Under the pieces are notes generated by a model. That model ran no database searches and had not been told where the DNA came from. It saw only the letters and a list, made by a program, of their open reading frames with translations. The translations under genes were made by a program, and so were the position numbers. A stretch of DNA of 64,000 bases from Magnetospirillum gryphiswaldense MSR-1 v2 (GTDB taxonomy: Bacteria > Pseudomonadota > Alphaproteobacteria > Rhodospirillales > Magnetospirillaceae), in contig NC_023065.1 of NCBI RefSeq assembly GCF_000513295.1, positions 1,302,001-1,366,000 on the forward strand, written 5' to 3'. How positions within the stretch are numbered: the stretch's first letter is position 1; the number at the start of each line of letters is the position of its first letter. Shown piece after piece: positions 3,217 to 35,000 of the stretch.

Positions 3217-4260
3217 ATGACCTGGTTTCTGATCCAAGACATCAAGCGTGCCGCCATCGCCGCCGCTGCCGCCACCGCCATCGCCGCCGCCATCGCGGTG
3301 GCCATTCCCGGCGCCCAGGCGGCCGAGCCCAAGACCTTGCTGAACGTGTCCTATGACCCGACGCGCGAGCTTTACCAGGAATTCAACGCCGCTTTCGTCA
3401 AGTCGTGGAAAGCCAAGACCGGCGAGGATTTGAAGATCAACCAGTCGCATGGCGGCTCGGGCAAGCAGGCCCGCGGCGTCATCGACGGCCTGGAAGCCGA
3501 CGTGGTCACCCTGGCGCTGGCCTACGACATCGACGCCATCGCCGAAAAGGCCAAGCTGCTGGGGCCCGATTGGCAGAAGCGTTTGTCCTATAATTCGTCG
3601 CCCTACACCTCGACCATCGTCTTCCTGGTCCGCAAGGGCAATCCCAAGAACATCAAGGATTGGGACGACCTGATCCGCTCCGACGTCCAGGTCGTCACCC
3701 CCAATCCCAAGACCTCGGGCGGCGCGCGCTGGAACCATCTGGCCGCCTGGGGCTATGCCCTCAACAAGTGGAACAACGATCAGGCCAAGGCCGAAGATTT
3801 CGTCGGCAAGATCTACAAGAACGTTCCGGTGCTCGATACCGGCGCGCGCGGCTCGCTGACCACCTTCGCCCAACGGGGCATCGGCGACGTCTTCCTGTCG
3901 TGGGAAAATGAAGCCATCCTGGCCAACCGCGAATTCGGCGGCGGCTTCGAGACCGTCATCCCCAGCCTGTCCATCCTGGCCGAGCCGCCGGTGGCGGTGG
4001 TCGACAAGGTGGTCGACCGTCGGGGCACCCGCACCCAGGCCGAGGCCTACCTGAAGTTCCTCTATTCACCCGAGGGCCAGGAAATCGCCGCCAAGAACCA
4101 CTATCGTCCGCGCGATCCCGATATCGCCAAGAAGTACGCCTCCGACTTCCCCAATGTGCGGCTGTTCACCATCGACGACGTCTTCGGCGGCTGGGGCAAG
4201 GCACAGAAGGAACATTTCGGCGATGGCGGCATCTTCGACCGCATCCAGGCCAAGAAGTAA
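3217..4260 (+). CDS. cysP: Sulfate/thiosulfate-binding periplasmic protein
   Basis: Periplasmic solute-binding protein (347 residues) that delivers sulfate or thiosulfate to the CysTWA transporter. An alanine-rich Sec signal peptide ends near AQAAEP (about residue 36). The mature part carries family signatures: [13 protein letters not shown] near the N-terminus, the [12 protein letters not shown] anion-binding loop, the [12 protein letters not shown] strand, and [13 protein letters not shown]. Sbp and CysP cannot be separated reliably by eye. It starts an operon with cysT, cysW and cysA; an AGGAG site lies 9 nt before the ATG. The organism's sulfide-oxidising genes lie just upstream. Confidence 0.92.
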
Positions 4261-20073: not shown

Positions 20074-20201
20074 GAGCATTTGCCGCTGATCGGTGGACGC
20101 GGGCGGCAAGAAACGGCATGGGGTCGTCCGGCCCCTTGGGCCTAACCAAGCCGTGATGCCCCAGACCTAAAGTTCCGACAATTATCCTCGGGCAAAAAGC
20201 C

Positions 20202-20531
20202 TCAAGCGGCGCAGGCGCCGCCGTTATCCTTGGCGCAATAAAGACCGTACAGGGTGTTGATGACGGCGCTGGCCTCGGCCCCCGACAGCGAATAATAGAT
20301 GGTCTGGGCCTGACGGCGGGTCTGCACCAGATTGTCGCGGCGCAGGCGCGCCAGATGCTGCGACAGGGCCGATTGCGACAGACCGATCAGCCGCTCCAAC
20401 TCGCCCACCGACTTTTCACCATGCAAAAGCTGGCACAGGATCATCAGCCGGTGTTCATTGCTCATAGCCTTCAGCAGGGTGCTGGCACGCCGCGCGCTAT
20501 CTTGGAGCTTATCCAATTCCATTTCCGACAC
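20202..20531 (-). CDS. ArsR-family repressor of the SqrR/BigR persulfide-sensing type
   Basis: Winged-helix repressor of 109 residues. The recognition helix is LSQSALSQHLARLRRDNLV. Two cysteines, C33 in RLMILCQLL and C99 in LYGLYCAKD, are 66 residues apart, the same spacing as the C41/C107 pair of Rhodobacter SqrR and C42/C108 of BigR, which form a polysulfide bridge when reactive sulfur is present. The metal-binding motif of ArsR/SmtB (ELCVCDL) is absent. A third cysteine, C107, is at the tail. It would therefore control sulfide oxidation genes; fccAB and the SQR gene in this window are candidates. Start ATG 20531 follows a clear promoter. Confidence 0.85.
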   Translation of the reverse strand: MSEMELDKLQDSARRASTLLKAMSNEHRLMILCQLLHGEKSVGELERLIGLSQSALSQHLARLRRDNLVQTRRQAQTIYYSLSGAEASAVINTLYGLYCAKDNGGACAA

Positions 20532-20558
20532 CCTTATACCACTTGCAATCGGTCATAT

Positions 20559-20586
20559 ATCATACCACTCATTCTTGATGTTTCAA
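20559..20586 (-). promoter_or_regulatory. Sigma-70-type promoter of the SqrR-like gene
   Basis: On the minus strand TTGAAA (-35, 20581-20586) and TATGAT (-10, 20559-20564) are separated by 16 bp, about 28 bp before the start codon at 20531. The match is good, but the transcription start is not proven. Confidence 0.65.
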
Positions 20587-20598
20587 TATTAGCGCGCA

Positions 20599-20625
20599 GA
20601 GTATTTTCCAGAATACTCGGAAAAT
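20599..20625. promoter_or_regulatory. Overlapping inverted repeats upstream of the SqrR-like gene
   Basis: GAGTATT-N6-AATACTC (20599-20618) overlaps a second pair, ATTTTCC-N9-GGAAAAT (20603-20625). The first is a candidate ArsR-family operator just upstream of the promoter; the second could form an alternative hairpin in the dxs 3' region. Which one functions is unknown. Confidence 0.45.
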
Positions 20626-20674
20626 AGCCGATTATTGAACACAGAATTATGTGTTGTATACCAAGGCAGCCCGG

Positions 20675-22588
20675 TCAGGCGCTGGCCACCGCCGCCGACT
20701 GCCCCAAGGCCGCCAGCACGCAGGCGACGATGTGCGGGGCATTGAGACCGGCCAGATCGTATTGCTTGAGCGGCGCTTCGTGTTCCAGGAAAACATCGGG
20801 CAACACCATGGGCCGCACCTTCAGGCCGCGATCCAGGGCACCGGAATGGGCGAGGAAATGCAGCACCTGGGCGCCGAATCCGCCGATCGAGCCTTCCTCG
20901 ATGGTCACCAAAACCTCGTGCTCGCGCGCCAGACGCAAGATCATGTCCTGATCCAACGGCTTCATGAAGCGGGCATCGGCGACGGTGGTGGACAGCCCGC
21001 GCGCCGCCAGTTCGTCGGCGGCCTTCATCGCCTCGCCCAGGCGGGTGCCCAGCGACAACAGGGCGACGCGGCTGCCTTCACGGATGATACGGCCCTTGCC
21101 GATGGGCAGCACCTCGCCGCGCACCGGCAGGTCCAGGCCGACACCTTCGCCGCGCGGATAGCGGAAGGCGGACGGACGATCATCCAAGGCCTTGGCGGTG
21201 GCCACCGCATGCATCAACTCCAGCTCGTCCGCCGGGCTCATCAACACGATGTCGGGCAGACAGCCGAGATAGGCCAGATCGAAGGCGCCGGCATGGGTGG
21301 CGCCGTCGGCGCCGACCAGACCGGCCCGGTCGATGGCGAAGCGCACCGGCAGCTTCTGGATGACCACGTCATGCACCAACTGGTCATAACCACGTTGCAG
21401 GAAGGTGGAATAGAGCGCACAGAACGGCTTGAAGCCCTCGCAGGCCAGACCGGCGGCGAAAGTCACCGCGTGCTGTTCGGCGATGCCGACGTCGAAGCAG
21501 CGATTGGGAAAGCGCTCGGCGAATTTGTCCAGGCCGGTGCCGGCGGGCATGGCGGCGGTGATGGCGACGACGCGGTCGTCATTTTCCGCTTCGGCCAGCA
21601 AGGCTTGTGCGAACACCGAGGTGTAACTGGGCGCGTTGGCCTTGGGCTTGGCCAGGGCGCCAGTGACCACGTCGAACTTGCCGACGCCGTGATACTTGTC
21701 GGCGGCCTGTTCCGCCGGCGGATAGCCGCGGCCCTTCTTGGTCACCACATGGATCAGTACCGGCTTGTTGTCCTCGGAATCGCGGACGTTCTTCAGTACC
21801 GGCAGCAGATGGTCGAAATTGTGGCCGTCGATGGGGCCGACGTAATAAAAGCCCAGTTCCTCGAACAACGTGCCACCGCCGGAAACGAAGCCGCGGGCAT
21901 ATTCCTCGGCCCGCTTGGCCGCGCGCTCCAGGGGCGGCGGCAGCATGGCCGCCAGATCCTTGGCGAAGTGGCGAATGGACAGATAAGGCCGCGACGACAG
22001 CAGACGCGACAGATAGGCGCTCATGGCGCCGACCGGAGGGGCGATGGACATGTCGTTGTCGTTCAAGATGACGACCAGACGCGAATCCATGGAACCGGCA
22101 TTGTTCATGGCCTCATAGACCATGCCGGCGCTCATGGCGCCGTCACCGATGACGGCGATGACGTTGAAATCCTCGCCCTTGAGGTCGCGCCCCACCGCCA
22201 TGCCCAATCCCGCGGAAATGGACGTCGAGGAATGGCCGGCGCCAAACGGGTCGTATTCGCTTTCCGAACGCTTGGTGAAGCCCGACAGCCCGCCGCCCTG
22301 ACGCAGGGTGCGGATGCGTTCCTTGCGCCCGGTCAGGATCTTGTGCGGATAGCACTGATGCCCCACGTCCCAGATCAGCTTGTCGACGGGGGTCTGGAAA
22401 ACGTGATGCAGGGCCACGGTCAGCTCGACCACGCCCAGACCGGCGCCCAGATGACCGCCGGTGATGGACACCGCCTCGATCATTTCCTGGCGCACTTCAT
22501 CGGCCAGTTGGCGCAATTGCTCGGGCGTGAAGGCGCGGGTATCGGCGGGACAATCGACGCCGTCGAGCAGACGTTGGGAAGTGCTCAT
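20675..22588 (-). CDS. dxs: 1-deoxy-D-xylulose-5-phosphate synthase
   Basis: Thiamine-diphosphate enzyme that condenses pyruvate and glyceraldehyde 3-phosphate in the first step of the MEP isoprenoid pathway; 637 residues. Landmarks: [34 protein letters not shown], the TPP motif [20 protein letters not shown], and the C-terminal transketolase block with [18 protein letters not shown] and [11 protein letters not shown]. The ATG at 22588 is preferred because AGGA lies 7 nt upstream; an in-frame start further upstream lacks this. It follows ispA and xseB on the same strand, the usual alphaproteobacterial order. Confidence 0.95.
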
Positions 22589-22598
22589 GGTCATATCC

Positions 22599-23501
22599 TT
22601 ACACGCTGCGGGTGACGACATAGCGGGCCGTCAGCCTCAGCAAATGGGCAGCATCGCCGAAGGGGTCCAAATGGCGGCAGGCCTGTTCGGCCAGCATGTC
22701 CGCCTGAGCGCGGGCGTGCTCGACCCCCAGCAGGGAAACAAAGGTGGCCTTGCCGGCATCGGCATCCTTGCCCAATTTCTTGCCCACCTGCATCTCGTCA
22801 CCCTGCACATCCAACAGATCGTCGGCAATCTGGAAGGCCAGACCCAGATCGTGGGCGTAATTCTTCAAGGCCAGCCGCAACGACGACGGTGCCTTGCCCA
22901 GGATGGCCCCGGCTTCGCAGGCGAAACCGATCAGCCGACCGGTCTTCATTTGCTGCAAGCGGGTGATGTCGGCCATATCCATGGTCAATTGCGCCGCCTG
23001 CAAATCGACCATCTGGCCGCCGACCATGCCCATGCCGCCAGCGGCGTGGGCCAGTTGCCACACCAATTCACAGCGCACCGCGGGATCGGGATGGGTGGAC
23101 TCAGCCGCCAGCACTTCAAACGCACGCGATTGCAGGGCATCACCGGCCAGAAGTGCGGTGGCCTCATCGAACTGACGATGACAGGTGGGGCGGCCCCGGC
23201 GCAGATCGTCGTCATCCATGCACGGCAGATCGTCGTGGATCAGCGAATAGCAATGCACCATTTCCAAGGCGCAGCCGACCCGCAACGCCGCCGCCGGCGA
23301 CACGTTGAACAAGGACGCCGCCTGCACGGTCAGGAACGGGCGCAGCCGTTTACCACCGTCCAGGGCACTATAGCGCATGGCATCGTGGACGCGGCGCTCG
23401 GGCCCGTCGGGCACGGGCAGCAGATGGGCCATTTCGTCATTGACGGCAGCCGCGTTGGCGGCCAGGGCCTCGAGCAGAATGTCGGACACGTGCGGGGTCA
23501 C
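22599..23501 (-). CDS. ispA: Polyprenyl (farnesyl/geranyl) diphosphate synthase
   Basis: Short-chain trans-prenyltransferase, 300 residues. The first aspartate-rich motif is [10 protein letters not shown] and the second is QIADDLLD; the GGKRLRP substrate loop is also present. Residues around the first motif fit the farnesyl type. The GTG start overlaps the xseB stop by 4 nt. It supplies the prenyl diphosphates made from the MEP pathway that dxs starts. Confidence 0.93.
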
Positions 23502-23743
23502 TCGATGCCGGCGGGTTCAAGCCCGATGGCGCCATCGCCGCCCAGCACGATCTTATCGACCTTGGCCTGGGCCTCCTTCAGCTTGGCTTCGCAGTGACGC
23601 TTCAAAAGCGCGCCGCGCTCATAGGCGCCGATGGCGTCGTCAAGCCGGGTCGAGCCGGTCTCCAGCTTGCGCACGATGGCGTCAAGTTCAGCCAGCGCGT
23701 CCTCGAAACTAAGCGTGGCGATGTCGGGCGGCAGGTCGGCCAT
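23498..23743 (-). CDS. xseB: Exodeoxyribonuclease VII small subunit
   Basis: Small subunit of exonuclease VII, 81 residues from MADLPPDIATLSFEDALAEL. The helical pattern LDAIVRKLETGSTRLDDAIGAYERG and LLKRHCEAKLKEAQAKVDKI is characteristic. The longer reading frame upstream has no fitting sequence, so the ATG at 23743 was chosen. It forms a tight operon with ispA and dxs. Confidence 0.92.
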   Translation of the reverse strand: MADLPPDIATLSFEDALAELDAIVRKLETGSTRLDDAIGAYERGALLKRHCEAKLKEAQAKVDKIVLGGDGAIGLEPAGIE

Positions 23744-23854
23744 GGCGCCAATGTCTCTCTTATTATTCTGGGGTTCCTGAATGAAGGGGGGAAGTTTACG
23801 GATGCAAGACAGCAAAGGCAAGCAAACCGGTTGATTGAATTCGCATCACCGCCA

Positions 23855-23882
23855 TTGACAGCGGGGGGCCGGTTTGTATAAA
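23855..23882 (+). promoter_or_regulatory. Strong sigma-70-type promoter of rpsD
   Basis: TTGACA (23855-23860) and TATAAA (23877-23882) are separated by 16 bp, about 115 bp upstream of the rpsD start. This leaves a leader of roughly 105 nt that could hold S4 autoregulatory structure; none was identified with certainty. Confidence 0.8.
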
Positions 23883-23996
23883 AGCCCCTTTCTTCCCGAG
23901 AATGTGGGCGCGTCATGCGTCCCGCCCCAGGTGAAACTGGATCAGGCCTATCGGGACAAACCCCAACCGGCAACAGCCGGGACCAAAGGAAGTACC

Positions 23997-24614
23997 ATGA
24001 CCAAGCGTATTGAAGCGAAATTCAAGATCAATCGCCGCCTGGGCGTCAATCTGTGGGGCCGTGGCAAGAGCCCGCTGGCTCGCGGCAAGGAAACCCCGCC
24101 CGGCCAGCATGGCGCCCGCCGCAAGAAGCCCTCTGACTTCGGCACCCAGCTGATGGCCAAGCAGAAGCTGAAGGGCTATTACGGCAACATTTCGGAAAAG
24201 CAGTTCCGCAAGCTGTATGACGAGGCCGTGCGCCGTCGTGGCGACACCTCGGAAAACCTGATCGGTCTGCTGGAGCGTCGCCTGGACGCCGTCGTCTACC
24301 GCATGAAGATGGCCGTCAGCCCCTTCCAGGCCCGTCAGGTCATCAACCACGGCCACATCCACGTGAACGGCAAGCGCCTGAACATCGCTTCCTATCAGGT
24401 GAAGGACGGCGACATCATCAGCGTCAAGCAGAAGTCCAAGGATCTGGCCATCATCCTGGAAGCCGCCCAGTCGCCGGAACGTGACGTCCCCGACTATCTG
24501 GAAGTCGATCACAAGGAAATGAAGGGCACCTTCATCCGCGCCCCCAAGCTGTCGGACGTGCCCTATCCGTGCCAGATGGAACCCAATCTGGTCATCGAAT
24601 TCTATTCGCGCTAA
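23997..24614 (+). CDS. rpsD: 30S ribosomal protein S4
   Basis: Primary 16S rRNA-binding protein S4, 205 residues. The start [21 protein letters not shown] follows GGAAGTACC. The S4 RNA-binding domain ([27 protein letters not shown]) and C-terminal LVIEFYSR are complete. The last four codons and stop form the left attachment site of a 5.6 kb element; because the duplicated core includes the stop codon, the protein is intact after insertion. Confidence 0.97.
24602..24614 (+). repeat. attL: 13-bp core overlapping the rpsD stop
   Basis: CTATTCGCGCTAA encodes the final Tyr-Ser-Arg-stop of S4 and is identical to the copy at 30222-30234. Just inside the element, GCATTACC-N9-GGTAACGC (24618-24642, 7 of 8 bases paired) may be a recombination arm or excisionase site. 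Confidence 0.82.
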
Positions 24615-24662
24615 CACGCATTACCAAATTCTGCGGTAACGCAGGGTTTGAAGCGTAACAAG

Positions 24663-24697
24663 AAGCTGTCTGGCACATGGTGTTGGGCAGCTTTTTT
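24663..24697 (+). terminator. Element-borne replacement terminator for rpsD
   Basis: AAGCTG / CAGCTT arms with a 19-nt loop, followed by a run of T, about 50 bp after the rpsD stop and inside the element. It would end rpsD transcription now that the native terminator has been moved 5.6 kb away. Confidence 0.7.
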
Positions 24698-24711
24698 GTT
24701 GGGCGGGTGAG

Positions 24712-25173
24712 ATGACGCAACACGCGCAAAATGCAAGGATACTGATTATTGACGACAACGTTGCGGAAGCGACGTTGACCAAGCTGACGCTACAGGCGGA
24801 CAGGATTGGCTACAGCATTGAGCACGTGACGGACGGCTATACGGGTATTGATAAGCTGAAGCAAGCTGCGCTGACAGAACGCGCGTATCATATTGTAATA
24901 GTTGACGTAAATATGCCGGTTATTTCAGGTTGTGAAACGCTTGAGATAATACGCAACACGGGTGAAATTGCGGACACATACGTGGCAATTTTGACAAGCT
25001 TGCAGTGCAAGACAGATTGCCCACGCGACTTGTATTTATGTCACGCAAAGAAAGCTGACATATACTTGCACAAAAAAACGACGCTTGATGATTTTGAGGC
25101 TGAGCTTTTACAGCTAAAGACTGACTACGAAAAATGTATGAAGATGACTGCGGCTAACGCCAAAGATATATAG
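24712..25173 (+). CDS. Single-domain (CheY-like) response regulator on the integrated element
   Basis: Receiver-only protein of 153 residues. Acid pocket residues sit in ILIIDDNVAEA, the phosphoacceptor is D65 in IVIVDVNMPVISG, the switch residue is in AILTSLQ, and the lysine in IYLHKK. A short charged tail follows (about residues 130-153). No output domain. Codon use is unlike the surrounding chromosome. It is the first gene inside attL, 65 bp before the integrase. Its sequence is only loosely like the second receiver at 26576, so the two are not a recent duplication. Its kinase is unknown and may be chromosomal. Confidence 0.85.
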   Translation: MTQHAQNARILIIDDNVAEATLTKLTLQADRIGYSIEHVTDGYTGIDKLKQAALTERAYHIVIVDVNMPVISGCETLEIIRNTGEIADTYVAILTSLQCKTDCPRDLYLCHAKKADIYLHKKTTLDDFEAELLQLKTDYEKCMKMTAANAKDI

Positions 25174-25238
25174 GTCATTCTTTAGATAACAAGACGCTAT
25201 ACTAACACGTAGCTAACAGGCACTTTTAAGGTGCAGCT

Positions 25239-26456
25239 ATGGACGTTGGACAGCGTGAAATTGAACTGCGTGGCGGTCGGATTGTGCTGTACACGCTGGC
25301 GAGCGACAAACGGGGCATTTGGCAGGCGCGTTTTAGACTTGGCACGGAACGCACGTTGGTGCGGCGCAGCATGAAGACGACGGACTTGGCGGAGGCGAAA
25401 CGGACGGCGGAGGAGCTGTACGAGGAGCTGCGCTACAAGCAACGCAACAATCACCCGTTAAAAGATCAAACATTCAAACAACTTGCGGACGATTACGTTC
25501 GGAAGGCACAGCGGGAGACGCTGGAAGGACGCTTGAGTAAGGGACGGTTGGTGCTGGTTGAGGGCACGCTAAAACGCTACTTGCTCCCATTTTTCGGCAA
25601 AAAACCGATCAACAGCATAACGACGGCGGACTTTAACGACTACGACGACTGGCGGCTGGACTATTGGACGAAGGGCTACGGTGCGGACAGGAAGGTAGCA
25701 ACGGCGGCGACAACACCATCGGCGAAAACGCTGGTGATGGAACAGAGCATGTTACGGCAGATTTTGAAGCACGGGCTGGAACAAGGGTCTTTGAAGCAAT
25801 TGGCGTTTATGAAGGCGAAGCGGGCAAAGACGAACAGGCGCGGCGCTTTTGACGTGAAGGAATACAGGCTGTTGATATGGACGGCACGGCAGCGCACGCG
25901 ATCTGCGGAGCATCCACGTGTGAAACGAGACAGGCAGCTTTTGGAACTTTACGTGCGGCTGCTGGTTGGGACGGGCATGCGGGTTGGCGAGGCGCGTGGA
26001 CTGACTTGGCGGGACGTTGAACTGATACACACGGGCAACGGCAAGCAAACGGAAACGCTGCGGCTGTGGGTGGATGGCAAGACGGGCAAGCGGGCGGTGA
26101 TCGGGACGCGAGCGGCGAAGAACACGTTGAAGAAGCTGCTGGCACATTATGGTTGGAAGGACTTGGACGAGGCGCGGGCAAAGGGAAACGGGCTATTTAC
26201 GAACAACAACGGCGAGGACATACACACGTTTGAGGTGGGCTTTAAGAATTTGATGGCGGCGGCAAACTTGGACACGGACAGGCACGGCAACGCGAGAACG
26301 CTTTATAGCCTGAGACACACCTACGCGACGTTTAGGCTGCTGTACGGGGGCACGGACGTTTACTTGCTGGCTAGGAACATGGGAACGAGCGTGCTGATGA
26401 TTGAACAGCATTACGGGCATGTAAGCACGACGCTGGCGGCGGACAAGCTGATCTGA
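25239..26456 (+). CDS. Tyrosine recombinase/integrase
   Basis: Site-specific recombinase of 405 residues that would integrate and excise this element at rpsD. N-terminal arm-binding region (about 1-65), SAM-like core-binding domain (about 75-200), catalytic domain from about 210. Catalytic residues: R248 in GTGMRVGEARGL, R359 in LYSLRHTYAT, nucleophile Y392 in IEQHYGHV. The usual first box-II histidine is Y356 and the usual GH is MGT, variations common among proteobacterial island integrases. The frame is intact. It is separated from attL only by the first response regulator gene. Confidence 0.93.
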   Translation: MDVGQREIELRGGRIVLYTLASDKRGIWQARFRLGTERTLVRRSMKTTDLAEAKRTAEELYEELRYKQRNNHPLKDQTFKQLADDYVRKAQRETLEGRLSKGRLVLVEGTLKRYLLPFFGKKPINSITTADFNDYDDWRLDYWTKGYGADRKVATAATTPSAKTLVMEQSMLRQILKHGLEQGSLKQLAFMKAKRAKTNRRGAFDVKEYRLLIWTARQRTRSAEHPRVKRDRQLLELYVRLLVGTGMRVGEARGLTWRDVELIHTGNGKQTETLRLWVDGKTGKRAVIGTRAAKNTLKKLLAHYGWKDLDEARAKGNGLFTNNNGEDIHTFEVGFKNLMAAANLDTDRHGNARTLYSLRHTYATFRLLYGGTDVYLLARNMGTSVLMIEQHYGHVSTTLAADKLI

Positions 26457-26575
26457 AAACGGGCGGCGAGAAAAATGAATGAATTGTGATGGGATAGATA
26501 CATTTTAAATGCGGAAATACACATACTTTTAAGCTACCGTAATATGGACATAAGAAACTTGACAGGCGCAAAATA

Positions 26576-26992
26576 TTGCAAGCGACTAGCAAAATCAAAG
26601 TGCTATTAGTTGACGATAGCGTCCCATATTCGCACTTTGTACGAGAGGCGATACTGCAGACGAAGCACGAGTGCGAGATTGAGCTTGCACATAACGGGCT
26701 TGAGGCGCTTGAAAAATTGAAGCTGCGAGAAAATACCGACGAACAGTACGATATTGTTATTACTGACCTAAATATGCCCATTATGAGCGGTTTTGATTTA
26801 ATACGCGCAATTAGACAATCGCATACATTAAGAAATTTAGCTGTGGCTGCAATATCATCGCAATCACGTTCGGACATTTCCAAACTTATACTGGCGCTTG
26901 GCGCTGATACATTTTTTGAGAAGAAAGGCAACATGAATAGCGTTGCGCACGATATGGACTTGGCGTTGCAGAAGCTGGTTTTGAAAAAATAG
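26576..26992 (+). CDS. Second single-domain response regulator on the element
   Basis: Receiver-only protein of 138 residues beginning at a TTG. Key residues: D13/D14 in LLVDDSVPYS, phosphoacceptor D64 in IVITDLNMPIMSG, switch serine in AAISSQS, lysine in TFFEKKG. The N-terminus reads directly into the fold, so little is missing. It flanks the integrase on the other side from the first receiver gene. Receiver-only proteins usually act as phosphate shuttles or by binding a partner; here the partner may be another element protein. Confidence 0.82.
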   Translation: MQATSKIKVLLVDDSVPYSHFVREAILQTKHECEIELAHNGLEALEKLKLRENTDEQYDIVITDLNMPIMSGFDLIRAIRQSHTLRNLAVAAISSQSRSDISKLILALGADTFFEKKGNMNSVAHDMDLALQKLVLKK

Positions 26993-27321
26993 GGCGGGCA
27001 ACGCAGAGGGGCTTGTGTTGGGAGACACAAGATATGAACAGCGCAATAGATGCTGGATTAAGCAAAAATAACAAAATAATAATATAGACAGAACCTAAAA
27101 AAACGCGCAACGACGCTGAAGATCATTGAAAAAATGACCGAATGCGATGAAGCGCGTTTTATTTTTTCATTGCGTATTTTGGAAGCGGTTGACGGCAGTG
27201 ATAGAACGGGCAATTGGCGAACATACTTACTGTATGTTGGTGGGACAGATCGGGGCGGATTGCGGCGATAACCAGGTCAGATTTTTTGAAAGATCGGCGA
27301 CCACGCTGCATAAATAGTGGC
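26993..27321. other. Intergenic stretch with hairpin and palindrome
   Basis: AT-rich spacer without a convincing gene. It holds a hairpin AAACGCGC (27101-27108) / GCGCGTTT (27152-27159) followed by TATTTTTT, usable as a terminator with a large, partly paired loop, and the first copy of the AACATAC-N5-GTATGTT palindrome at 27220-27238. Confidence 0.6.
27220..27238. repeat. Palindrome copy 1 (AACATAC-N5-GTATGTT)
   Basis: Perfect 7-bp arms with spacer TTACT, preceded by GGCG. Related copies at 29249-29267 and 29315-29337 share the preceding GGCGAAC context and the 5-nt spacer. Likely binding site of a dimeric protein used across the element. Confidence 0.7.
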
Positions 27322-27585
27322 ATGAAGGCACGAGAGATAATTGACGCTGACGCTTGGCTGGCGCGGAAAAAGGAACGCAGGGGCGAGACGATAAGCGACG
27401 AGAGACGGCAATTGATGGCAATGATTTACAGCGACGCGACGCTGGAACGGGAACAGGTGGAGCTGGAACGGGCGAAACTTGAATTGGGGCAGATAAAGGC
27501 TGAGATAATAAAAATTAGGGCCGAAGCTGTTAAAAATCTGTCTTCGGCAAATACAGATGCAGTAAATGTTACTAAACTACAATAA
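27322..27585 (+). CDS. Small charged helical protein of unknown function
   Basis: ORF of 87 residues from ATG 27322 (MKAREIIDADAWLARKKERR). The second half, EREQVELERAKLELGQIKAEII, has a regular heptad-like pattern suggesting a coiled coil. No family is recognised. The ribosome site is weak (AGTGG). An upstream start at 27214 would run through the palindrome and is unlikely. Its position between the integrase block and the rep gene fits an element-specific accessory protein. Confidence 0.5.
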   Translation: MKAREIIDADAWLARKKERRGETISDERRQLMAMIYSDATLEREQVELERAKLELGQIKAEIIKIRAEAVKNLSSANTDAVNVTKLQ

Positions 27586-27801
27586 TAAAATCCGAAACAA
27601 CCCCATTAAAACTGGCTAAATTGCTGGACTTTTTGGGAATTGTTTGGAAATAACATTTTCTACAGTTTGTAATGTATAATACCTTACTTTACCAATATCT
27701 CAATTCTGTTCAATTCCACATCAGTATCCAAAACCATAAAACCTCAACTCTCTCTTCCACTCAAATCGTAATTTCAAATTCAATATCCAAGCACAGCTTG
27801 G

Positions 27802-28689
27802 TTATTTCAGTCTCCTTGTTATTAATCCCTGAAATCCTCCGCATCTATCAACGGCCATAACTACCGACTTGGCTATTGGATAGCTATAGAGAGACGAATA
27901 CTGAGTGCGAGTGAATTGTTTTTCGTCATCGTCGCTTGCGACACTCTTTGAATGCTGCAACCTGAACTTAAGCATGTAGGTTGCCATATTATGTAAATTT
28001 TCATCGTGCGTTTTGTCTTTATGAAGGTCCGTAAAGTCTACTTGATGGCTGCCATTGTAGTATTTTCGTATTTCGCGCTCTATGTCGTATTTTGGATTTT
28101 GGAACGACGGAATATACATAACTGCATGAAAATGAAGGAGAAAACATGCATTTTTAGCGTCCTTGTCGTATCCGAGCGCCGATAGCGTATTTACTTTTCT
28201 ATCCGATAATTCTTCATCTCCTGCGATTGCATCAATCTCAAATGCCCCAATAAATCGTATATTGTCATCGGCACAATCCTGTATCTTGTCAAACAAATTG
28301 TCCATATCCTTCCGCAGCTTTTTAATAAGATCGCTGTTTATATCCAATGGGTTGTAATGGACAGAATGCAATATTGTAAGCAATCTCAACTTGTCTGCGC
28401 TTACACTTCCAAACTTATCAATCACATATTTTGCAAATAATTCTTGTTTCTTATGTCGGCACATCGGACAGAATGGCTGATTGCATTTTTGGCTTGCGGA
28501 GCAATTCATAATTCGCAAAGCAAGCGCTGTAGCTTTTTTGTCAGAAAAGTCTCGGCACAAACTTTCAACAACATACTTCCGTTGCCTTATCTTACTGTCT
28601 GCGCGATCGCCGATTTTATTCTTGTATCTGTATTTCTGCTCAAATACAGATTTGTCGGCAATTTTATCTAAAGTGACTTTCTCGCCCAT
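27802..28689 (-). CDS. HUH-type rolling-circle replication initiator (Rep_1-like)
   Basis: Protein of 295 residues with the motifs of plasmid rolling-circle initiators. Zinc-finger-like block C63-X5-C69-X4-C74-X2-C77 (NQPFCPMCRHKK), as in pC194/pUB110-type Rep; motif I LRLLTILHSVHYN; motif II with H186-F-H188 in CFLLHFHAVMYIP, the metal-binding HUH pair; motif III MATYMLKFRLQ with Y238 and K241, the nicking tyrosine and partner lysine. It would nick one strand at a double-strand origin. Low GC. Assignment is by motif order, not by database search. A 34-residue ORF lies 9 bp upstream in the same direction. Confidence 0.78.
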   Translation of the reverse strand: MGEKVTLDKIADKSVFEQKYRYKNKIGDRADSKIRQRKYVVESLCRDFSDKKATALALRIMNCSASQKCNQPFCPMCRHKKQELFAKYVIDKFGSVSADKLRLLTILHSVHYNPLDINSDLIKKLRKDMDNLFDKIQDCADDNIRFIGAFEIDAIAGDEELSDRKVNTLSALGYDKDAKNACFLLHFHAVMYIPSFQNPKYDIEREIRKYYNGSHQVDFTDLHKDKTHDENLHNMATYMLKFRLQHSKSVASDDDEKQFTRTQYSSLYSYPIAKSVVMAVDRCGGFQGLITRRLK

Positions 28690-28698
28690 TGCGGCAGC

Positions 28699-28803
28699 CT
28701 ACTTTGAATACTTGACGGTAAGAAAAATTGCATATAGCGCAAGCGCGTTAATATCCACTCGCTTTCCATCAAATCCATATTCCACTAAAGTTCCTTGTTT
28801 CAT
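28699..28803 (-). CDS. 34-residue ORF directly upstream of rep
   Basis: Encodes MKQGTLVEYGFDGKRVDINA followed by LALYAIFLTVKYSK. A strong ribosome site GGGGAGTGAAAA stands just before the ATG, better than the one for rep itself, and the stop is 9 bp before the rep start. It could be a leader peptide that couples translation of rep, or a copy-control protein. No family is recognised. Confidence 0.55.
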   Translation of the reverse strand: MKQGTLVEYGFDGKRVDINALALYAIFLTVKYSK

Positions 28804-28843
28804 TTTTCACTCCCCTAAAATATATGCGCTACATGCGCAGCGG

Positions 28844-28867
28844 TATTTATGATCTTTGGCATAAATA
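28844..28867. promoter_or_regulatory. Operator-like inverted repeat between rep and the divergent gene
   Basis: TATTTATG (28844-28851) and CATAAATA (28860-28867) form perfect 8-bp arms with an 8-bp spacer in the 98-bp region between the rep leader ORF and the divergent small gene. Position and symmetry suggest a repressor site controlling both directions. Confidence 0.55.
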
Positions 28868-28901
28868 ATATCGGTAATTCAAAAATATATTTGGAGGAAT
28901 T

Positions 28902-29180
28902 ATGAACGCATTACAAAACGCATATATAACCTTAAAAACCAATAACTTAACCGAAGGTCAATACGACTTTAGCAGAAAGTGGCTTGGACGTGATCGGAGC
29001 TATTATGGCAGCATGAAAGCGCGGCAACGGCAAGCGGGGCTGCGGACGATGCTGACATTGGCTGGAAATTTGACGAAGGCATTGGTCAGGGCAAAAGCGG
29101 AACAGCGCGGCAAGGACGCGGCGATATTGGAGAAACTGAGTGGGCGAATTTGGGACAGCGTGATGGTGGGACGGTGCTGA
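28902..29180 (+). CDS. Small DUF6626-like protein
   Basis: ORF of 92 residues with an excellent ribosome site (GGAGGAATT before the ATG). The pattern NALQNAYITLK...FSRKWLGRDRSYYGSM resembles small alphaproteobacterial proteins I know as DUF6626; the family name is from memory. The arrangement of helices with a conserved WLGR-SYY core could be a compact helix-turn-helix, which would make it a candidate binder of the neighbouring palindromes. Function is not known. Confidence 0.6.
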   Translation: MNALQNAYITLKTNNLTEGQYDFSRKWLGRDRSYYGSMKARQRQAGLRTMLTLAGNLTKALVRAKAEQRGKDAAILEKLSGRIWDSVMVGRC

Positions 29181-29199
29181 TTTGCGTCCACGTCCAGCA

Positions 29200-29337
29200 T
29201 GTTGTCGTGTAACACGACACTTCCCTGGCGCTGAACGACATGGGGGCGAACATACATGCTGTATGTTGGCCGATGTTGTCGTGTAACACGACACGTCGCT
29301 GGACGACATGGGGGCGAACTTACGTGACGTAAGTTCG
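29200..29337. repeat. Two direct repeat units, each with two palindromes
   Basis: Unit A: TGTCGTGTAACACGACA (29203-29219) then AACATAC-ATGCT-GTATGTT (29249-29267). Unit B: the same 17-bp palindrome (29277-29293), then CGAACTTAC-GTGAC-GTAAGTTCG (29315-29337). Both units share ACGACATGGGGGCGAAC between the palindromes; unit B has a short deletion before it. Spacing of about 74 and 66-69 bp is near six to seven helical turns, compatible with iteron-like or regulatory sites. Confidence 0.85.
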
Positions 29338-29440
29338 GGCGCGATCCGCAAAACGCATTGCACTCACCTCCTCCACTTTGATCCACGCAAAACGTCGGAA
29401 ACGCCCACAGCAGCAGCAAAACAACTTGGGGAGCTACCTA

Positions 29441-29470
29441 CACACAGCGCAGTTGAAACTGCGCTGTGTG
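29441..29470. repeat. Perfect 14-bp-arm palindrome, candidate nick or origin hairpin
   Basis: Arms CACACAGCGCAGTT and AACTGCGCTGTGTG are separated by only two bases (GA). There is no T run on either strand, so it is not a standard terminator. Such extrudable hairpins are typical of double-strand origins of rolling-circle replicons. Confidence 0.7.
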
Positions 29471-29661
29471 ACGACGAGCGGAGCTTGGCGGTTGAAATAA
29501 TATAAACCGACCGCCGAAAAACTGATCAGATTGGGCACGACTACATTATATGAAATTGCGCTGCATAGGACAACGATTACAGTTACTTATAGATATATCG
29601 GTCACTGATAGCACAACACAGACAGTACTGTATTGCAAGCGAACTGCTTGGAGTACACAAC

Positions 29662-30105
29662 ATGACTGCATTTGCGAAATTGAAACTGACCACTGCAACG
29701 CGCAAGATCGAGAAACTGAGCGCGGAACAATATGCGCGGCAACGGGTGCTTGGAAACTTGGCGGAACAGCTTGGCTTGGTTAAGGCCATGCTGGACGGCA
29801 CGGCGTTTACAGTGAAACAGACGCGATACAAGACGGACGAGAACGGCGAGCGCGTTGGATACGAGCGCAGCAAGCGGCTGCGGCAGTGGTTTTGGCAGGA
29901 CGCTGACGGCAACTGGCTGCTGGAACTGCGCTATGGTAATCGGCCATTGAAACTGAGCGGCGAGAACACTGCGGTGGTGGCTGGCACGAAGGAGCAGCTT
30001 GCGAGCGTTATTGAAACGCTGATGGAAGCTGTGCAGGTAGGCGAACTGGACAAGGCCCTGGCCATTGCAAAAAAGGAACGCTTGGCCATGCTGCGGAAAG
30101 GCTGA
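29662..30105 (+). CDS. DUF6641-like mobile-element protein
   Basis: ORF of 147 residues (MTAFAKLKLTTATRKIEKLS...). The layout, a basic start, KRLRQWFWQDADGNW, then a beta-rich LLELRYGNRPLKLS part and a helical, lysine-rich tail, resembles the family I know as DUF6641, found in proteobacterial phages and plasmids; the name is from memory. GGAG lies 9-12 nt before the ATG. Function unknown. It is the last gene before attR. Confidence 0.65.
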   Translation: MTAFAKLKLTTATRKIEKLSAEQYARQRVLGNLAEQLGLVKAMLDGTAFTVKQTRYKTDENGERVGYERSKRLRQWFWQDADGNWLLELRYGNRPLKLSGENTAVVAGTKEQLASVIETLMEAVQVGELDKALAIAKKERLAMLRKG

Positions 30106-30221
30106 CGGCGCAAAGGTGGTAGATTGCGACGATACTTTTGGAGTATAACAGGTATGAGGCTGATAGCTTTTTATGGCGCAATAAGTGCAGCATAAACAGT
30201 TCATTACTCGTATTCGCTGCA

Positions 30222-30234
30222 CTATTCGCGCTAA
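30222..30234 (+). repeat. attR: second copy of the 13-bp core
   Basis: CTATTCGCGCTAA, identical to the rpsD 3' end. Beyond it the sequence returns to GC-rich chromosome and an rpsD-type terminator. A nearby partial copy, TATTCGCTGC (30211-30220), may be an accessory integrase site. Confidence 0.82.
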
Positions 30235-30260
30235 TCCGGTTCGCCGGATTGCAGCACGAA

Positions 30261-30286
30261 GGCCCGGTGGAAACACCGGGCCTTTT
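30261..30286 (+). terminator. Native rpsD terminator, displaced beyond attR
   Basis: GGCCCGGTG / CACCGGGCC stem closed by a GAAA tetraloop and followed by TTTTG. It has no plus-strand gene of its own except the element's last gene, and fits rpsD before the insertion. Confidence 0.85.
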
Positions 30287-30352
30287 GTTTTGTCCGCCGC
30301 GCGAGGGCACCGCCGATCGGTTCCGATATCAGCGGGATGCCAAAAGACAAAT

Positions 30353-30384
30353 AAAAAGGCCGCGCTCCATACCGGAGCGCGGCC
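30353..30384 (-). terminator. Rho-independent terminator of the phasin gene
   Basis: Minus-strand stem GGCCGCGCTCC / GGAGCGCGGCC with a 5-nt loop followed by TTTTTAT, 21 bp after the phasin stop. Confidence 0.88.
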
Positions 30385-30404
30385 CTTTTCAACGACGCCG
30401 AAGA

Positions 30405-30752
30405 TTACTTGGCGACGGTCTTCTGCAGGGCTTCAACCTGGGCCTTCACCGGCTCGAAAGCCTGGGTGAAAACCGACTGGGTCAGCTCGGCGATGTTGCG
30501 GCTGTCGGCGACGGCGGCTTCAACGCCTTCCTTCACCAGCTTCTGCTGCAATTCGATGAATTCGGCCGGATTCTTGACGCCAGCCAAAGCCTGGATCGAA
30601 GCGGTCAGCTTCTCGGCGTTCTTGGTGGCCAGAGCCTGGTAAGCCTTGGCCAATTCCTGATAGCCGGCGATGGCGGCAGTGCCGCTCTTGGTCAGGGCTT
30701 CGGTGTTGGCCTTGGTGGCAGCGGCGATCTGTTCAAAATTGGCGGTCGGCAT
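30405..30752 (-). CDS. Phasin family protein
   Basis: Polyhydroxyalkanoate granule-coating protein, 115 residues from MPTANFEQIAAATKANTEAL with AAGGAAG ahead of the ATG. The protein is almost entirely amphipathic helix (AIAGYQELAKAYQALATKNAEKL, then VFTQAFEPVKAQVEALQKTV), as in the PF09361 phasins. It covers PHA granules and affects their size and number. Two sites resembling the PhaR operator lie upstream, supporting the call. Confidence 0.88.
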   Translation of the reverse strand: MPTANFEQIAAATKANTEALTKSGTAAIAGYQELAKAYQALATKNAEKLTASIQALAGVKNPAEFIELQQKLVKEGVEAAVADSRNIAELTQSVFTQAFEPVKAQVEALQKTVAK

Positions 30753-30782
30753 GTTGGCTTCCTTGGGCTGGGGTCGTCTTCG

Positions 30783-30849
30783 CTGCAACGCAGCATTTGG
30801 GCACAATAACGGTTTCCCACAGGAATGCAATCGAAATGTTGCGTTGCAG
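30783..30849 (-). promoter_or_regulatory. Pair of PhaR-like operators upstream of the phasin gene
   Basis: CTGC-AAC-GCAG (30783-30793) and TTGC-GTT-GCAG (30839-30849) match the CTGC-N3-GCAG form described for the PHA-responsive repressor PhaR in Rhodobacter. They lie 31 and 87 bp upstream of the start. Binding is inferred. Confidence 0.55.
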
Positions 30850-30870
30850 CAATTCTGACATCTTTGCGAA

Positions 30871-30899
30871 AGTTACCCTTCGTTACCCTTCGTTACCCG
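30871..30899. repeat. 10-bp tandem repeat upstream of the efflux operon
   Basis: GTTACCCTTC is repeated about three times head to tail, 42-70 bp before the efflux gene start. The 10-bp period equals one helical turn, so it may be a regulator-binding array or simple slippage. Confidence 0.6.
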
Positions 30900-30940
30900 G
30901 CTGTCGTTGACGGCCCACGCCAGACCTGCAAGATGGTGGC

Positions 30941-32071
30941 ATGAACAGATCACGCATCGCCCTCACCGTCGCCATCCTGGCCGCTCTTGCCGGCACCTTC
31001 TGGTATGTGGCTGGACGCAAATCCACCGCCCCCAACGCCCAGGCCGAGGCCAAGCCCGTGCCGGTGGTCACCGCCTTTGCGGTCGAACAGCCCATGCCGG
31101 TGCGGATCGAGGCGGTGGGCAATATCCAAGCCCTGGCGGTGGTCGCCATCCGCCCCCGAGTCGAAGGCGAGGTGTTGCAGGTCCATATCCGTGAGGGCCA
31201 GGAAGTGGCCCAGGGCGACGCCCTGTTCACCCTGGATGCCCGCATGGCCGAGGCCAACAAACGTCAGGCCGAGGCCAATCTGGCCCGTGACAAGGCGCAA
31301 CTGGACCGCGCCCGGGCCGATCTGGTGCGCTATACCGAGCTGTTGAAGGCCGGCAGCGCCACCAAACAGAAGGTCGAGCAATCCCAGGCCGAGGCGGCCC
31401 AGGCGGAAGCGGCGGTCAAATCCGATCTGGCGGCCATCGACAATGCCCGGCTGACCATGGGCTATGCCACCATCAAGGCGCTGGTGCCCGGTCGCACCGG
31501 CACCATCAACGCCAAGCTGGGGTCGCTGGCCAAGCCGGGCGATGCGCAATCCATGGTCACCATCACCCAGATGCGCCCCATCAACGTCGCCTTTTCGGTG
31601 GCGGAAAGCTATTTGCCGCGCATCCGCGCCGCCATGGCAGCCGGCCCCTTGGAGACGGTGGTGACCTCGACCGCCGATCCGACCTTGCGGGCGATGGGGC
31701 AGCTCAGCTTCATCGATTCGGCCATCGACACCACCACCGGCACCATCGGGCTGAAAGCCACTTTCACCAATGACGACACAAGGCTGTGGCCGGGCCAGTT
31801 CGTCAACGTCACCCTGACCCTGGGCATCGAGGACAAGGCGCTGACCATCCCGGCGGAAGCGGTGCAAAGCGGCCAGAACGGCACCTTTGTCTTCGCCGTC
31901 GATGAACAGGCCAAGGCGTCCATCGCCCCCATCCGCGTCGATCGGGTGCTCGACGGTAGCGCCATCATCACCGACGGATTGAAGGCGGGAGCCAAGGTTG
32001 TCACGCAAGGACAGATGCGGCTGGCCCCCGGCCTGACGGTGAGCGAACGCGCCCCTCAGGCGGGCAAGTGA
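30941..32071 (+). CDS. RND efflux periplasmic adaptor (MdtA-like membrane fusion protein)
   Basis: Periplasmic adaptor of 376 residues linking an RND pump to an outer-membrane channel. N-terminal signal anchor (about residues 5-24), biotinyl-lipoyl-like half motifs around VEGEVLQVHIREGQEVAQGDALFTLD, a helical hairpin (about 95-165), and beta-barrel and membrane-proximal parts to the end. It lies 1 nt from the RND pump gene. No outer-membrane factor gene is adjacent. Substrate unknown. Confidence 0.9.
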   Translation: MNRSRIALTVAILAALAGTFWYVAGRKSTAPNAQAEAKPVPVVTAFAVEQPMPVRIEAVGNIQALAVVAIRPRVEGEVLQVHIREGQEVAQGDALFTLDARMAEANKRQAEANLARDKAQLDRARADLVRYTELLKAGSATKQKVEQSQAEAAQAEAAVKSDLAAIDNARLTMGYATIKALVPGRTGTINAKLGSLAKPGDAQSMVTITQMRPINVAFSVAESYLPRIRAAMAAGPLETVVTSTADPTLRAMGQLSFIDSAIDTTTGTIGLKATFTNDDTRLWPGQFVNVTLTLGIEDKALTIPAEAVQSGQNGTFVFAVDEQAKASIAPIRVDRVLDGSAIITDGLKAGAKVVTQGQMRLAPGLTVSERAPQAGK

Positions 32072-32072
32072 C

Positions 32073-35000
32073 ATGAACTTCTCGGAAATCTTCATCCGCC
32101 GCCCCATCGCCACCTTGCTGCTGACCCTGGTCATGGTGTTCGGCGGCATCGTCGGCTGGCGGCAATTGCCGGTGGCGTCGCTGCCCAACGTTGATTTTCC
32201 CACCATCAGCGTCTCGGCCAGCCTGTCGGGCGCCAGTCCCGACACCATGGCGTCGTCGGTGGCGGCACCGCTGGAACGCGAGTTTTCCACCATCGCCGGG
32301 CTGGAGACCATCACCTCGACCTCGGGTCAGGGCAGCACCTCGATCACCTTGCAATTCGTCCTCGACCGCGACATCGATGCGGCGGCCCAGGACGTGCAGG
32401 CGGCCATCACCCGGGCCCAGCGCCGCCTGCCCGAGGAAATGACCACGCCGCCGTCCTTCCGCAAGGTCAACCCGTCGGATGCCCCCGTCGTGCTGCTGGC
32501 GCTGTCGTCGCCGACCACGCCCTTGGCCACCTTGGACGATTACGCCCAGACCATCTTGCTGCCCCGGCTATCGCGGCTGTCGGGCGTCGCCCAGGTGCTG
32601 GTCTATGGCAGCCAGAAATTCGCCGTGCGCATCCAGTTGAACCCCGACGCCCTGGCCTCGCGCGGGATTGGCGTCGACGAACTGAGCAGCGCCATCAAGG
32701 CCGCCAATTCCAATTCACCCTTAGGCGTGCTGAACGGCCCCAAGCAGCAACTGACCTTGCAATCCAACGCCCAATTGCCCAACGCGGCGGCGTTCGGCGA
32801 ACTGGCCATCGCCTGGCGCGACGGCGCCCCGGTGCGCTTGAAGGACGTGGCCAATGTGCTCGATTCGGTCGAGAACAACCGCACCGCCTCGTGGTTCAAC
32901 GGCACCCGCGCCATCGTCCTGGCGGTGCAGCGCCAGCCCGAGGCCAACACCGTCCAGGTGGTCGACGACGTCCGCGCCCTGATGCCGACCATCAAGGACA
33001 GCCTGCCCCCCACCGTCGACGTGCAGGTGATGAACGACCGCTCGCGCTCGATCCGCGACGCCATCGTCGATGTGCAATTCACCTTCGCCATCACCATCGC
33101 CCTGGTGGTCATGGTCATCTTCATGTTCCTGCGCCGGCTGTCGGCCACCCTGATCCCGACCATCGCCATGCCGGTGTCGCTGGTCGCCACCTTGGGCGCC
33201 ATGTCGCTGCTGGGCTTTTCCCTCGACAATATCTCGCTGTTGGGCCTGACCCTGTCGGTGGGGCTGGTGGTCGATGACGCCATCGTCATGCTGGAAAACA
33301 TCCAACGTCACGTGGATGACGGCATGAAGCCGTTCGACGCCGCCATCAAGGGCGCGCGCGAGATCGGCTTCACCATCCTCTCCATCACCGTGTCGCTGGT
33401 CGCCGTCTTCATCCCCATCCTGCTGATGGGCGGCGTCATCGGCCGCATGTTCCACGAATTCGCCGTGGTGGTGACCCTGGCCATCGGCATTTCCGGTCTG
33501 GTGTCGCTGACCCTGACCCCGGTCATGTGCGCGCGCTGGCTGCGGCCCGAGCACGACACCCAGGCCGGGCCGGTGGAACGCGGGCTCGAACGGGGTTTCA
33601 ACACCCTGCTGGCCCTCTATCAGCGCAGCCTGGATTGGGTGCTGGGCCACGGTCTGTCCATGCTGGCCCTGGGGATCGCCACCATCGTCGCCACGGTGAT
33701 CCTGTTCCGCGAGGTGCCCAAGGGTTTCTTCCCCACCGAGGATACCGGCCAGATCTTCATCCAGACCGAAGCGGCCCAGGACATTTCCTTCGCCGCCATG
33801 GCGGAAGAGCAAAAGCGGATGGCGGCCATCGTCGGCGCCGATCCTTATGTCGCCACCGTCACCTCGGCGGTCGGGGTCTCGGGCCTGTCCAACGCCGCCA
33901 ATTCGGGCCGCATGTTCGTCAATCTGGTGGCGCGCGACCAGCGCCCCGGCGTCGAGCAGGTGATCGGACAATTGCGCAAGAAAACGGCGGGCAACCCGGC
34001 CATCAGCGTCTTCATCACCCCGGTGCAGACCCTGAACCTGGGCGGGCGGTCGTCGAAAAGCCAGTATCAGTACACGCTGGAAGGCATCAATCAGGCCGAG
34101 CTTTACGCCTTCGCCGACCGCCTGACCACCCGGCTGATGGCCGAGCCCTTGGTCCAGGACGTCACCAGCGATTTGCAGGTGAAAAGCCCGCAAGCCCTGG
34201 TCGCCGTCAACCGCGACAAGGCGGCGGCCTTGGGCGTGCGGTTGGAAGACGTGCGCAGCGCGCTTTATTCCGCCTATGGCTCGCGCGAGATTTCCACCAT
34301 CTACGCCACCATCGCCGATTACGCCGTGATCCTGGAGATGGACCCGCGTTTCCAAGGCGATTTGTCGGCCCTGGCCAAACTGAAGGTGCGGTCCACCGAC
34401 GGGACGCTGGTGCCGTTGGACGCGGTGGCGGAAATCGGGCGCACCGTCGGGCCGCTGACCATCAACCACCAAAGCCAGTTGCCCGCCGTCACCATCGCTT
34501 TCAACCTGGCCCCCGACATCGCCCTGGGCCAAGCCGCCGACCGCATCCGCACCATCCAGGCCGAGATGGGCATGCCCGCCGGCATCACCAGCAATTTCGC
34601 CGGCACCGCCAAGGTGTTCCAGCAATCCCTCTCCAACCAGGGCATCTTGCTGCTGGCGGCGGTGGTGGTCATCTATGTCATCCTGGGGGTGTTGTACGAA
34701 AGCCTGATCCACCCGGTGACCATCCTCTCCGGCCTGCCCTCAGCGGCAGTCGGCGCGTTGGCGACGCTGATGCTGTTCCGTCAGGAATTGTCGGTGATCG
34801 CCATGATCGGCATCCTGATGCTGATCGGCATCGTCAAGAAAAACGCCATCATGATGATCGATTTCGCTCTGGAAGCGCAGCGCAATCAAGGACTTGACCC
34901 GCATCAGGCCATCCGCCAAGCCTGCCTGCTACGCTTTCGCCCGATCATGATGACCACCATGGCCGCCATCATGGGCACCCTGCCCATCGCGCTCGGCCAT

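What the first reader, a model, noticed from the sequence alone, without database searches (positions are those of the whole stretch)
24602..30234. A 5.6 kb integrated element uses the 3' end of rpsD as its attachment site
Seen: a 13-bp direct repeat containing the S4 stop codon bounds a region with different composition and a tyrosine integrase; an orphan GNRA-loop terminator typical of a ribosomal gene lies just past the right repeat. Known: tyrosine integrases mostly choose tRNA genes; ribosomal-protein 3' ends are used by some Firmicutes elements. Inference: this element targets rpsD in an alphaproteobacterium and restores the gene by carrying the last codons and a new terminator.
Basis: partly seen in the sequence, partly recalled or inferred. 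Interest (0 to 1): 0.82.

Follow-up and report, generated by a model that had tools for sequence, protein, structure and literature searches.

The report
Tandem-forming mobile element beside rpsD
A 5.6-kb mobile DNA element has inserted at the very end of the gene for ribosomal protein S4 without damaging it, and close relatives in related bacteria stack copies there with a swapped replication gene.

Summary
A 13-bp repeat holding the S4 stop codon bounds a low-GC 5,620-bp unit with a tyrosine integrase. In same-genus relatives rpsD runs straight into the hairpin that here lies past the right repeat. Integrases 70-100% identical lie after rpsD, or in a unit array there, in six further genomes; a 35-40% relative does so in G013 and again in G149. 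Element DNA is 96-98% identical to four other-genus genomes whose rpsD is 82-83% identical: recent transfer. Four genomes hold two or three units in tandem, G034 probably too. Each left end brings its own terminator.

It works like streptococcal integrative mobilizable elements; rpsD is a known target in Streptococcus agalactiae (PMC4129442, PMC7487436, passages read). The conjugation ATPase family PF03135 was found in 0 of 8 hosts, so the transfer route is open.

The parts
23997..24614 (+). rpsD (ribosomal protein S4), integration target; reading frame intact
   Evidence: Pfam; 61-genome search
24602..24614 (+). attL: 13-bp repeat holding the S4 stop codon; core ATTCGCGCTAA 24604-24614
24625..24650 (+). 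left-end hairpin, 11 pairs
   Evidence: 90.8% of cells paired over 12 left ends
24661..24697 (+). element-borne intrinsic terminator for rpsD (hairpin plus T run)
   Evidence: 97.6% of cells paired over 12 left ends; standard-pair changes on one side only; shuffle control not exceeded
24712..25173 (+). REC1, single-domain response regulator (slot between attL and integrase)
   Evidence: Pfam Response_reg 45.5 bits; conserved DD/D/T/K by eye
25239..26456 (+). tyrosine integrase, 405 aa
26576..26992 (+). REC2, single-domain response regulator, on a ~750-bp segment missing in the G029 first unit, G150 first unit and G034
   Evidence: Pfam 62.7 bits
27220..27238 (.). palindrome B (AACATACTTACTGTATGTT) at the border of the REC2 segment
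27322..27585 (+). ORF87, small conserved protein
27802..28689 (-). probable HUH rolling-circle replication initiator (Cys63/69/74/77, H186-F-H188, Y238xxK241 invariant)
   Evidence: no solved-structure match
28902..29180 (+). DUF6626 protein, divergent to the Rep gene
   Evidence: Pfam PF20331 44.5 bits; phrog_33694
29203..29335 (.). palindrome block: A 29203-29219 and 29277-29293, B 29249-29267, C 29317-29335
29662..30105 (+). ORF147, conserved protein of the family
   Evidence: phrog_31551 E 2.5e-25
30222..30234 (+). attR: right copy of the 13-bp repeat
30259..30286 (+). displaced original rpsD terminator
   Evidence: such a hairpin directly after rpsD in element-free relatives

Best explanation
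A mobile, plasmid-like integrative element. Its tyrosine integrase recombines a circular attP with an 11-13-bp core at the 3' end of rpsD. The core carries the last S4 codons and the stop, so S4 is unchanged. A terminator brought by the element ends the rpsD transcript; the old terminator is pushed 5.6 kb downstream. Excised circles are probably copied by rolling-circle replication from the HUH Rep. New arrivals insert at the same core and build tandem arrays, in which units decay or exchange modules (Rep, response regulators). Shown by comparison: site, empty site, use of the same site by related elements, left-end terminator, recent transfer between genera, tandem units, module exchange. Inferred: excision in this strain, Rep activity, termination in the cell, what the response regulators do, route of transfer.
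For: Empty sites in relatives. rpsD adjacency, or a place in a unit array, of every integrase 70% or more identical that was found, plus the G013/G149 lineage. Junctions with the expected attP arrangement between units in G029 (two), G034, G149, G150, G157. Int DNA 95.7-98.4% against rpsD 81.6-83.2% in G029, G034, G149, G150. Terminator at 14 of 14 left ends seen. Rep: HUH and Tyr motifs invariant in 9 of 9; Rep_1 matched below cut-off in 5 of 9, best E 0.0019; AlphaFold pLDDT 81.6; viral-model matches to E 7e-6, of which in the 50 rows shown only two weaker ones (E 0.015, 0.018) carry replication-protein names; in G057 the same slot holds a different HUH Rep, PF23343, above its cut-off.
Against: No excised circle was observed for the window copy. 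For the window Rep itself no Rep family of Pfam matches even at E 1, and no solved structure matches. No excisionase was recognised. Terminator pairs never change on both sides and the shuffle control is not exceeded. G034 shows no Rep: its three element contigs end in that stretch. Against G157 the Int DNA is 85.8% and rpsD 83.5%, so that pair shows no recent transfer. The tree is a quick one and warns that the join of the G013/G149 lineage to the window lineage may be a long-branch effect.
Confidence: 0.78

Rival explanations
1. Integrative mobilizable element proper (a stronger form of the best explanation): the HUH Rep also acts as relaxase and the element moves by borrowing a conjugation channel.
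For: Streptococcal IMEs do this with rolling-circle-type relaxases at ribosomal-gene 3' ends, with tandem accretion, and Rep_1 plasmids are mobilised by ICEBs1 (passages of PMC5357655, PMC5704250).
Against: VirB4 family PF03135 found in 0 of 8 host genomes (the control rings in only 1 of 14 named genomes, so other conjugation types could be missed). No coupling protein was recognised among the seven ORFs searched; no oriT search was made.
Confidence: 0.35
2. Phage satellite (PICI-like): packaged by a helper phage.
For: Small size, tyrosine integrase, rpsD used by GBS PICI; DUF6626 and ORF147 match PHROG families.
Against: No primase, terminase, capsid or AlpA-type gene was recognised among the seven ORFs searched; tblastn found no relative of ORF147, Rep or DUF6626 in 50,697 phage records; scans of viral contigs for close relatives of Rep, ORF147 and Int confirmed none.
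Confidence: 0.15
3. An immobile relic: integrated long ago and now only decaying.
For: Internally deleted units in G029; decayed unit junction in G157:C18.
Against: The window's element genes are open, and its Int is 95.7-98.4% identical in four other-genus genomes whose rpsD is 81.6-83.2% identical.
Confidence: 0.1
4. Chance 13-bp repeat around unrelated low-GC DNA.
For: Short repeats occur by chance (one search lists many).
Against: p about 0.001, empty sites and the same core in eight genomes, one base changed in G013.
Confidence: 0.01

Closest known systems
Streptococcal IMEs at rpsI, rpmG, rplL, rpmE 3' ends (PMC5357655, PMC5704250; passages read)
   Same: Tyrosine integrase, ribosomal-gene 3' end, rolling-circle-type initiator gene, tandem accretion, module exchange.
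   Different: Alphaproteobacterial hosts, rpsD, 3.8-6.1-kb units against a mean of 10 kb there, no coupling protein recognised, response regulators as recurrent cargo; mobilisation untested.
SagCI / GBS PICI1-2 in rpsD (PMC4129442, PMC7487436; passages read)
   Same: Same target gene; SagCI at the same (3') end.
   Different: About 15 kb with a DNA primase for the PICIs, Firmicutes; integrase relationship not tested here.
Small rolling-circle plasmids with Rep_1 (PF01446) initiators
   Same: HUH motif and catalytic Tyr; cysteine cluster before them (comparison partly recalled).
   Different: Integrated with its own integrase; profile similarity only below cut-off.
DUF6626/ORF147 islands of Magnetospirillum relatives
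   Same: Related integrase, DUF6626 and ORF147 together in 9 of 21 loci scanned; palindrome A in 2 of the 8 that had been chosen by DUF6626 (L071-L078).
   Different: Other sites; extents not measured; no full-length relative of this Rep found in 55 family genomes outside rpsD units.

Membership tests
Tyrosine-integrase integrative element at a gene 3' end | direct repeats reconstituting the target gene and a matching empty site | tested here: met
Tyrosine-integrase integrative element at a gene 3' end | integrase with the catalytic residues | tested here: inconclusive
   R248, K281, R359, Y392 invariant in 6 of 6 (residue roles recalled), but by my reading the two usual His (His/Trp) positions read Y356 and N380; Pfam match over cut-off
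HUH rolling-circle Rep (Rep_1) | HUH motif and catalytic Tyr | tested here: met
   H186-F-H188, Y238 invariant in 9 of 9
HUH rolling-circle Rep (Rep_1) | Pfam match over cut-off or fold match to a solved Rep | tested here: not met
   below cut-off only. So it is called Rep-like, not filed as Rep_1
IME | mobilisation by a conjugative element (relaxase/oriT function) | not testable with these tools
   no VirB4 family match in 8 of 8 hosts
PICI / phage satellite | primase and packaging or regulatory hallmarks | tested here: not met
   none among the seven ORFs searched
ICE / AICE | own conjugation or FtsK-like transfer gene | tested here: not met
   none among the seven ORFs searched; overlapping antisense ORFs of up to 224 aa were not searched
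GBS rpsD PICI | integrase of the same family | not tested
   the streptococcal integrases were not fetched

The most novel reading that the evidence does not exclude
The rpsD units are one branch of an undescribed family of integrative rolling-circle elements in magnetotactic and related Rhodospirillales, marked by DUF6626 and ORF147. In it the replication initiator is swapped as a cassette so that units sharing one site carry unlike Reps (incompatibility escape), and stand-alone receiver domains, replaced over and over by other receivers, wire the element's excision or replication to the host's two-component kinases.
Probability: 0.3. Interest if true: 0.7.

Novelty: new variant of a known kind. 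Interest (0 to 1): 0.5.

Why it matters
It extends ribosomal-gene 3' ends as landing sites with tandem stacking, known from streptococci, to Alphaproteobacteria that include magnetosome-forming species. It gives a natural series (empty site, single unit, arrays, deleted units, swapped Rep) for testing how integrative plasmids share a site. Its recurrent response-regulator cargo raises a testable question about mobile elements listening to host signalling.

Tried and rejected
Chance repeat: rejected. tRNA or known RNA target: no tRNA in 20000-35000, no Rfam family at gathering score in 24000-31000. Defence island: only two weak PADLOC matches, E 0.0053 and 0.017. Known plasmid or phage: no hit for Rep, ORF147 or DUF6626 in phages and none for Rep in plasmids; viral-contig scans for close relatives of Rep, ORF147 and Int confirmed none. 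Structure of ORF147: model pLDDT 81.4, no solved-structure match at E 0.001; its role stays unknown. Covariation of the terminator: no pair changed on both sides, shuffles not exceeded. Rep incompatibility: co-resident Reps are 53, 41 and 45% identical in 3 of 3 arrays with two Reps, but only 7 of all 36 Rep pairs exceed 65%, so 3 of 3 is expected about half the time (and my arithmetic); kept as an idea only. Whether deletion target intA2 (1.22 kb) of PMC7860042 (passages read; rpsD has 0 occurrences in its main text) is this integrase could not be settled.

My notebook (entries) says REC in 12 of 13 units; recounted it is 13 of 14 (G034 counted as two units), 17 sequences, of which one (G149|2242) lost the acceptor Asp.
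Full report
WHAT WAS CHECKED. rpsD (23997-24614) ends in CTATTCGCGCTAA, and the same 13 bp recurs at 30222-30234; no other exact copy lies in the window. A script puts the chance of such a match for a random 30-mer of this window's flanks at 22 of 20,000. The unit between has GC 0.47 against 0.57-0.68 in bins wholly outside. In relatives, rpsD runs straight into a hairpin like the one that in the window lies past the right repeat. In 6 of the 10 same-genus rpsD loci examined the window's joined flanks align across the junction; in the other 4 they stop near the stop codon, though by eye a hairpin follows there too. None of the 10 matches this integrase in the 1.5 kb held. Two same-genus genomes (G003, G009) had only partial rpsD hits and were not examined. 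Beyond about 60 bp the right flank does not align, and the phasin gene was not found beside rpsD in any locus.

RELATIVES. In 61 genomes (own included) and then 317 genomes of the order, integrases 70-100% identical were found in G029, G034, G149, G150, G157 and G057, all after rpsD or in a unit array there. G013 and the first unit of G149 carry a second lineage (72% to each other, 35-40% to the window's) at the same site. From contig length I recall, without a call, that the window may be M. gryphiswaldense MSR-1 and G150 M. magneticum AMB-1. Of 79 named loci, S4 lies within the DNA held in 4, from those same four genomes. On a quick tree of 76 integrases the 10 rpsD-unit rows form one group (SH-aLRT 96, no bootstrap), but the program warns that the join of the G013/G149 pair to the other eight may be a long-branch effect; an eleventh rpsD neighbour, G197, stands apart. 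For many 'other' rows only 1.5 kb of flank was held, so that label means no S4 gene within the DNA held. Of 25 class-wide loci (385 genomes) only the window's own had S4.

MOBILITY. Against G029, G034, G149 and G150 the integrase DNA is 95.7-98.4% identical while rpsD is 81.6-83.2%; against G157 the figures are 85.8 and 83.5%, so that pair shows no recent transfer. The Int protein of G034:C5 is 100% identical over 405 residues though from another genus. Unit-unit junctions show the core with an element right end on its left and an element left end on its right: two in G029, one each in G034:C138, G149, G150, G157. G034:C138 could come from an array or a free circle; the others are arrays on one contig. 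G029 holds one longer unit and two internally deleted ones. 17 of 22 att sites hold ATTCGCGCTAA exactly.

TERMINATOR. The 12 aligned left ends carry an 11-pair hairpin (90.8% of cells paired) and then a stronger hairpin with a T run (24661-24697; 97.6%). Standard-pair changes are one-sided and the column-shuffle control is not exceeded, so this is conservation, not covariation. The G013 and G149 first-unit left ends have a different hairpin plus T run, judged by eye.

REPLICATION PROTEIN. The 27802-28689 product has four invariant cysteines (63, 69, 74, 77), an invariant HFH and an invariant YMLK in 9 of 9 homologs. Pfam's Rep_1 (5 of 9 members, best E 0.0019; not the window's own) and Zn_Tnp_IS91 (6 of 9) match below cut-off. 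An AlphaFold model (pLDDT 81.6, pTM 0.79) finds no solved structure at E 0.001 but viral models to E 7e-6, two of them at 0.001 or better; the only named ones in the 50 rows shown are a microvirus replication initiator (E 0.015) and a Rep fragment (E 0.018). In G057 the slot holds a different HUH Rep, PF23343 REP_ORF2-G2P at 33.4 bits, over its cut-off of 27.8. In 55 genomes of the family, full-length relatives of this Rep occur only in the rpsD units (9 in 6 genomes); three weak partial hits lie elsewhere, and beside one of these (G010) lie DUF6626 and an ORF147-like gene. None was found in G034, whose three element contigs all stop in that stretch.

MODULES AND CARGO. Units are mosaics with sharp borders. 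The two G157 units share Int at 98%, DUF6626 at 100%, ORF147 at 93%, but Rep at 45%. The second unit of G149 matches the window at 99/97/97% with Rep at 46%. REC2 lies on a segment that the first units of G029 and G150 and both G034 contigs lack, ending at palindrome B. 13 of 14 units carry one or two single-domain response regulators; only G057 showed none. Eight are close to REC1 (74-99%), the two REC2 copies are 98% alike, and otherwise identities run from 13 to 53%; 16 of 17 keep the acceptor Asp. The host has at least 142 receiver-domain matches in 4.37 Mb, about one per 31 kb, so this is more than background, though shared descent makes the units non-independent.

READING. The element is best read as an integrative, probably rolling-circle, plasmid-like element. 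It resembles the streptococcal integrative mobilizable elements with rolling-circle-type relaxases (passages). I do not file it as an IME: mobilisation could not be tested, and the conjugation ATPase family PF03135 was found in 0 of 8 hosts, with a control that rings in only 1 of 14 genomes. rpsD is already a known target in S. agalactiae (passages). In the held open-access library I found no paper with both Magnetospirillum and rpsD, none with Alphaproteobacteria, integrase, attachment site and ribosomal protein S4, none naming DUF6626, and three with rpsD, integrative, attachment site and ribosomal protein, of which I opened one (PMC7487436); subscription papers are not covered.

Noticed in passing
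29203-29219, 29277-29293; G029, G034, G150, G157, G018, G149: Palindrome TGTCGTGTWACACGACA: 2 sites in the window genome, both in this element; 2-18 in six relatives, 0 in G005 and G011; the backwards-pattern control gives 0 in all nine. Most sites looked at lie in islands with integrases, ORF147 or DUF6626; role unknown.
   Followed up: partly
L071, L072, L074, L078, L185, L186, L191, L193, L194: Nine of 21 loci scanned pair this type of integrase with both ORF147 and DUF6626 away from rpsD; several also hold a 188-aa tyrosine recombinase (by eye; Pfam match for the L071 one).
   Followed up: partly
L024:6455-6515 (G029): One extra C just before the core shifts the S4 frame, giving a C-terminus [20 protein letters not shown] that runs into the element; real change or sequencing error.
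   Followed up: no
L220 (G197:C9), rpsD 3553-4167: Genes that look by eye like a tailed prophage (no family search run), with an integrase from another branch, lie directly after rpsD; no right-hand repeat found in the 20 kb read.
   Followed up: partly
L186:4640-5046 (G157:C18): A decayed unit-unit junction of an rpsD-type element, beside a REC gene, sits inside a different island.
   Followed up: partly
G000:C1:681098, 1878206, 3883809: Three integrase genes with identical scores in the window genome, possibly copies of one repeated element.
   Followed up: no
30353-30389: A 16-bp inverted repeat, 94% complementary, between the rpsD side and the phasin gene; probable terminator.
   Followed up: no
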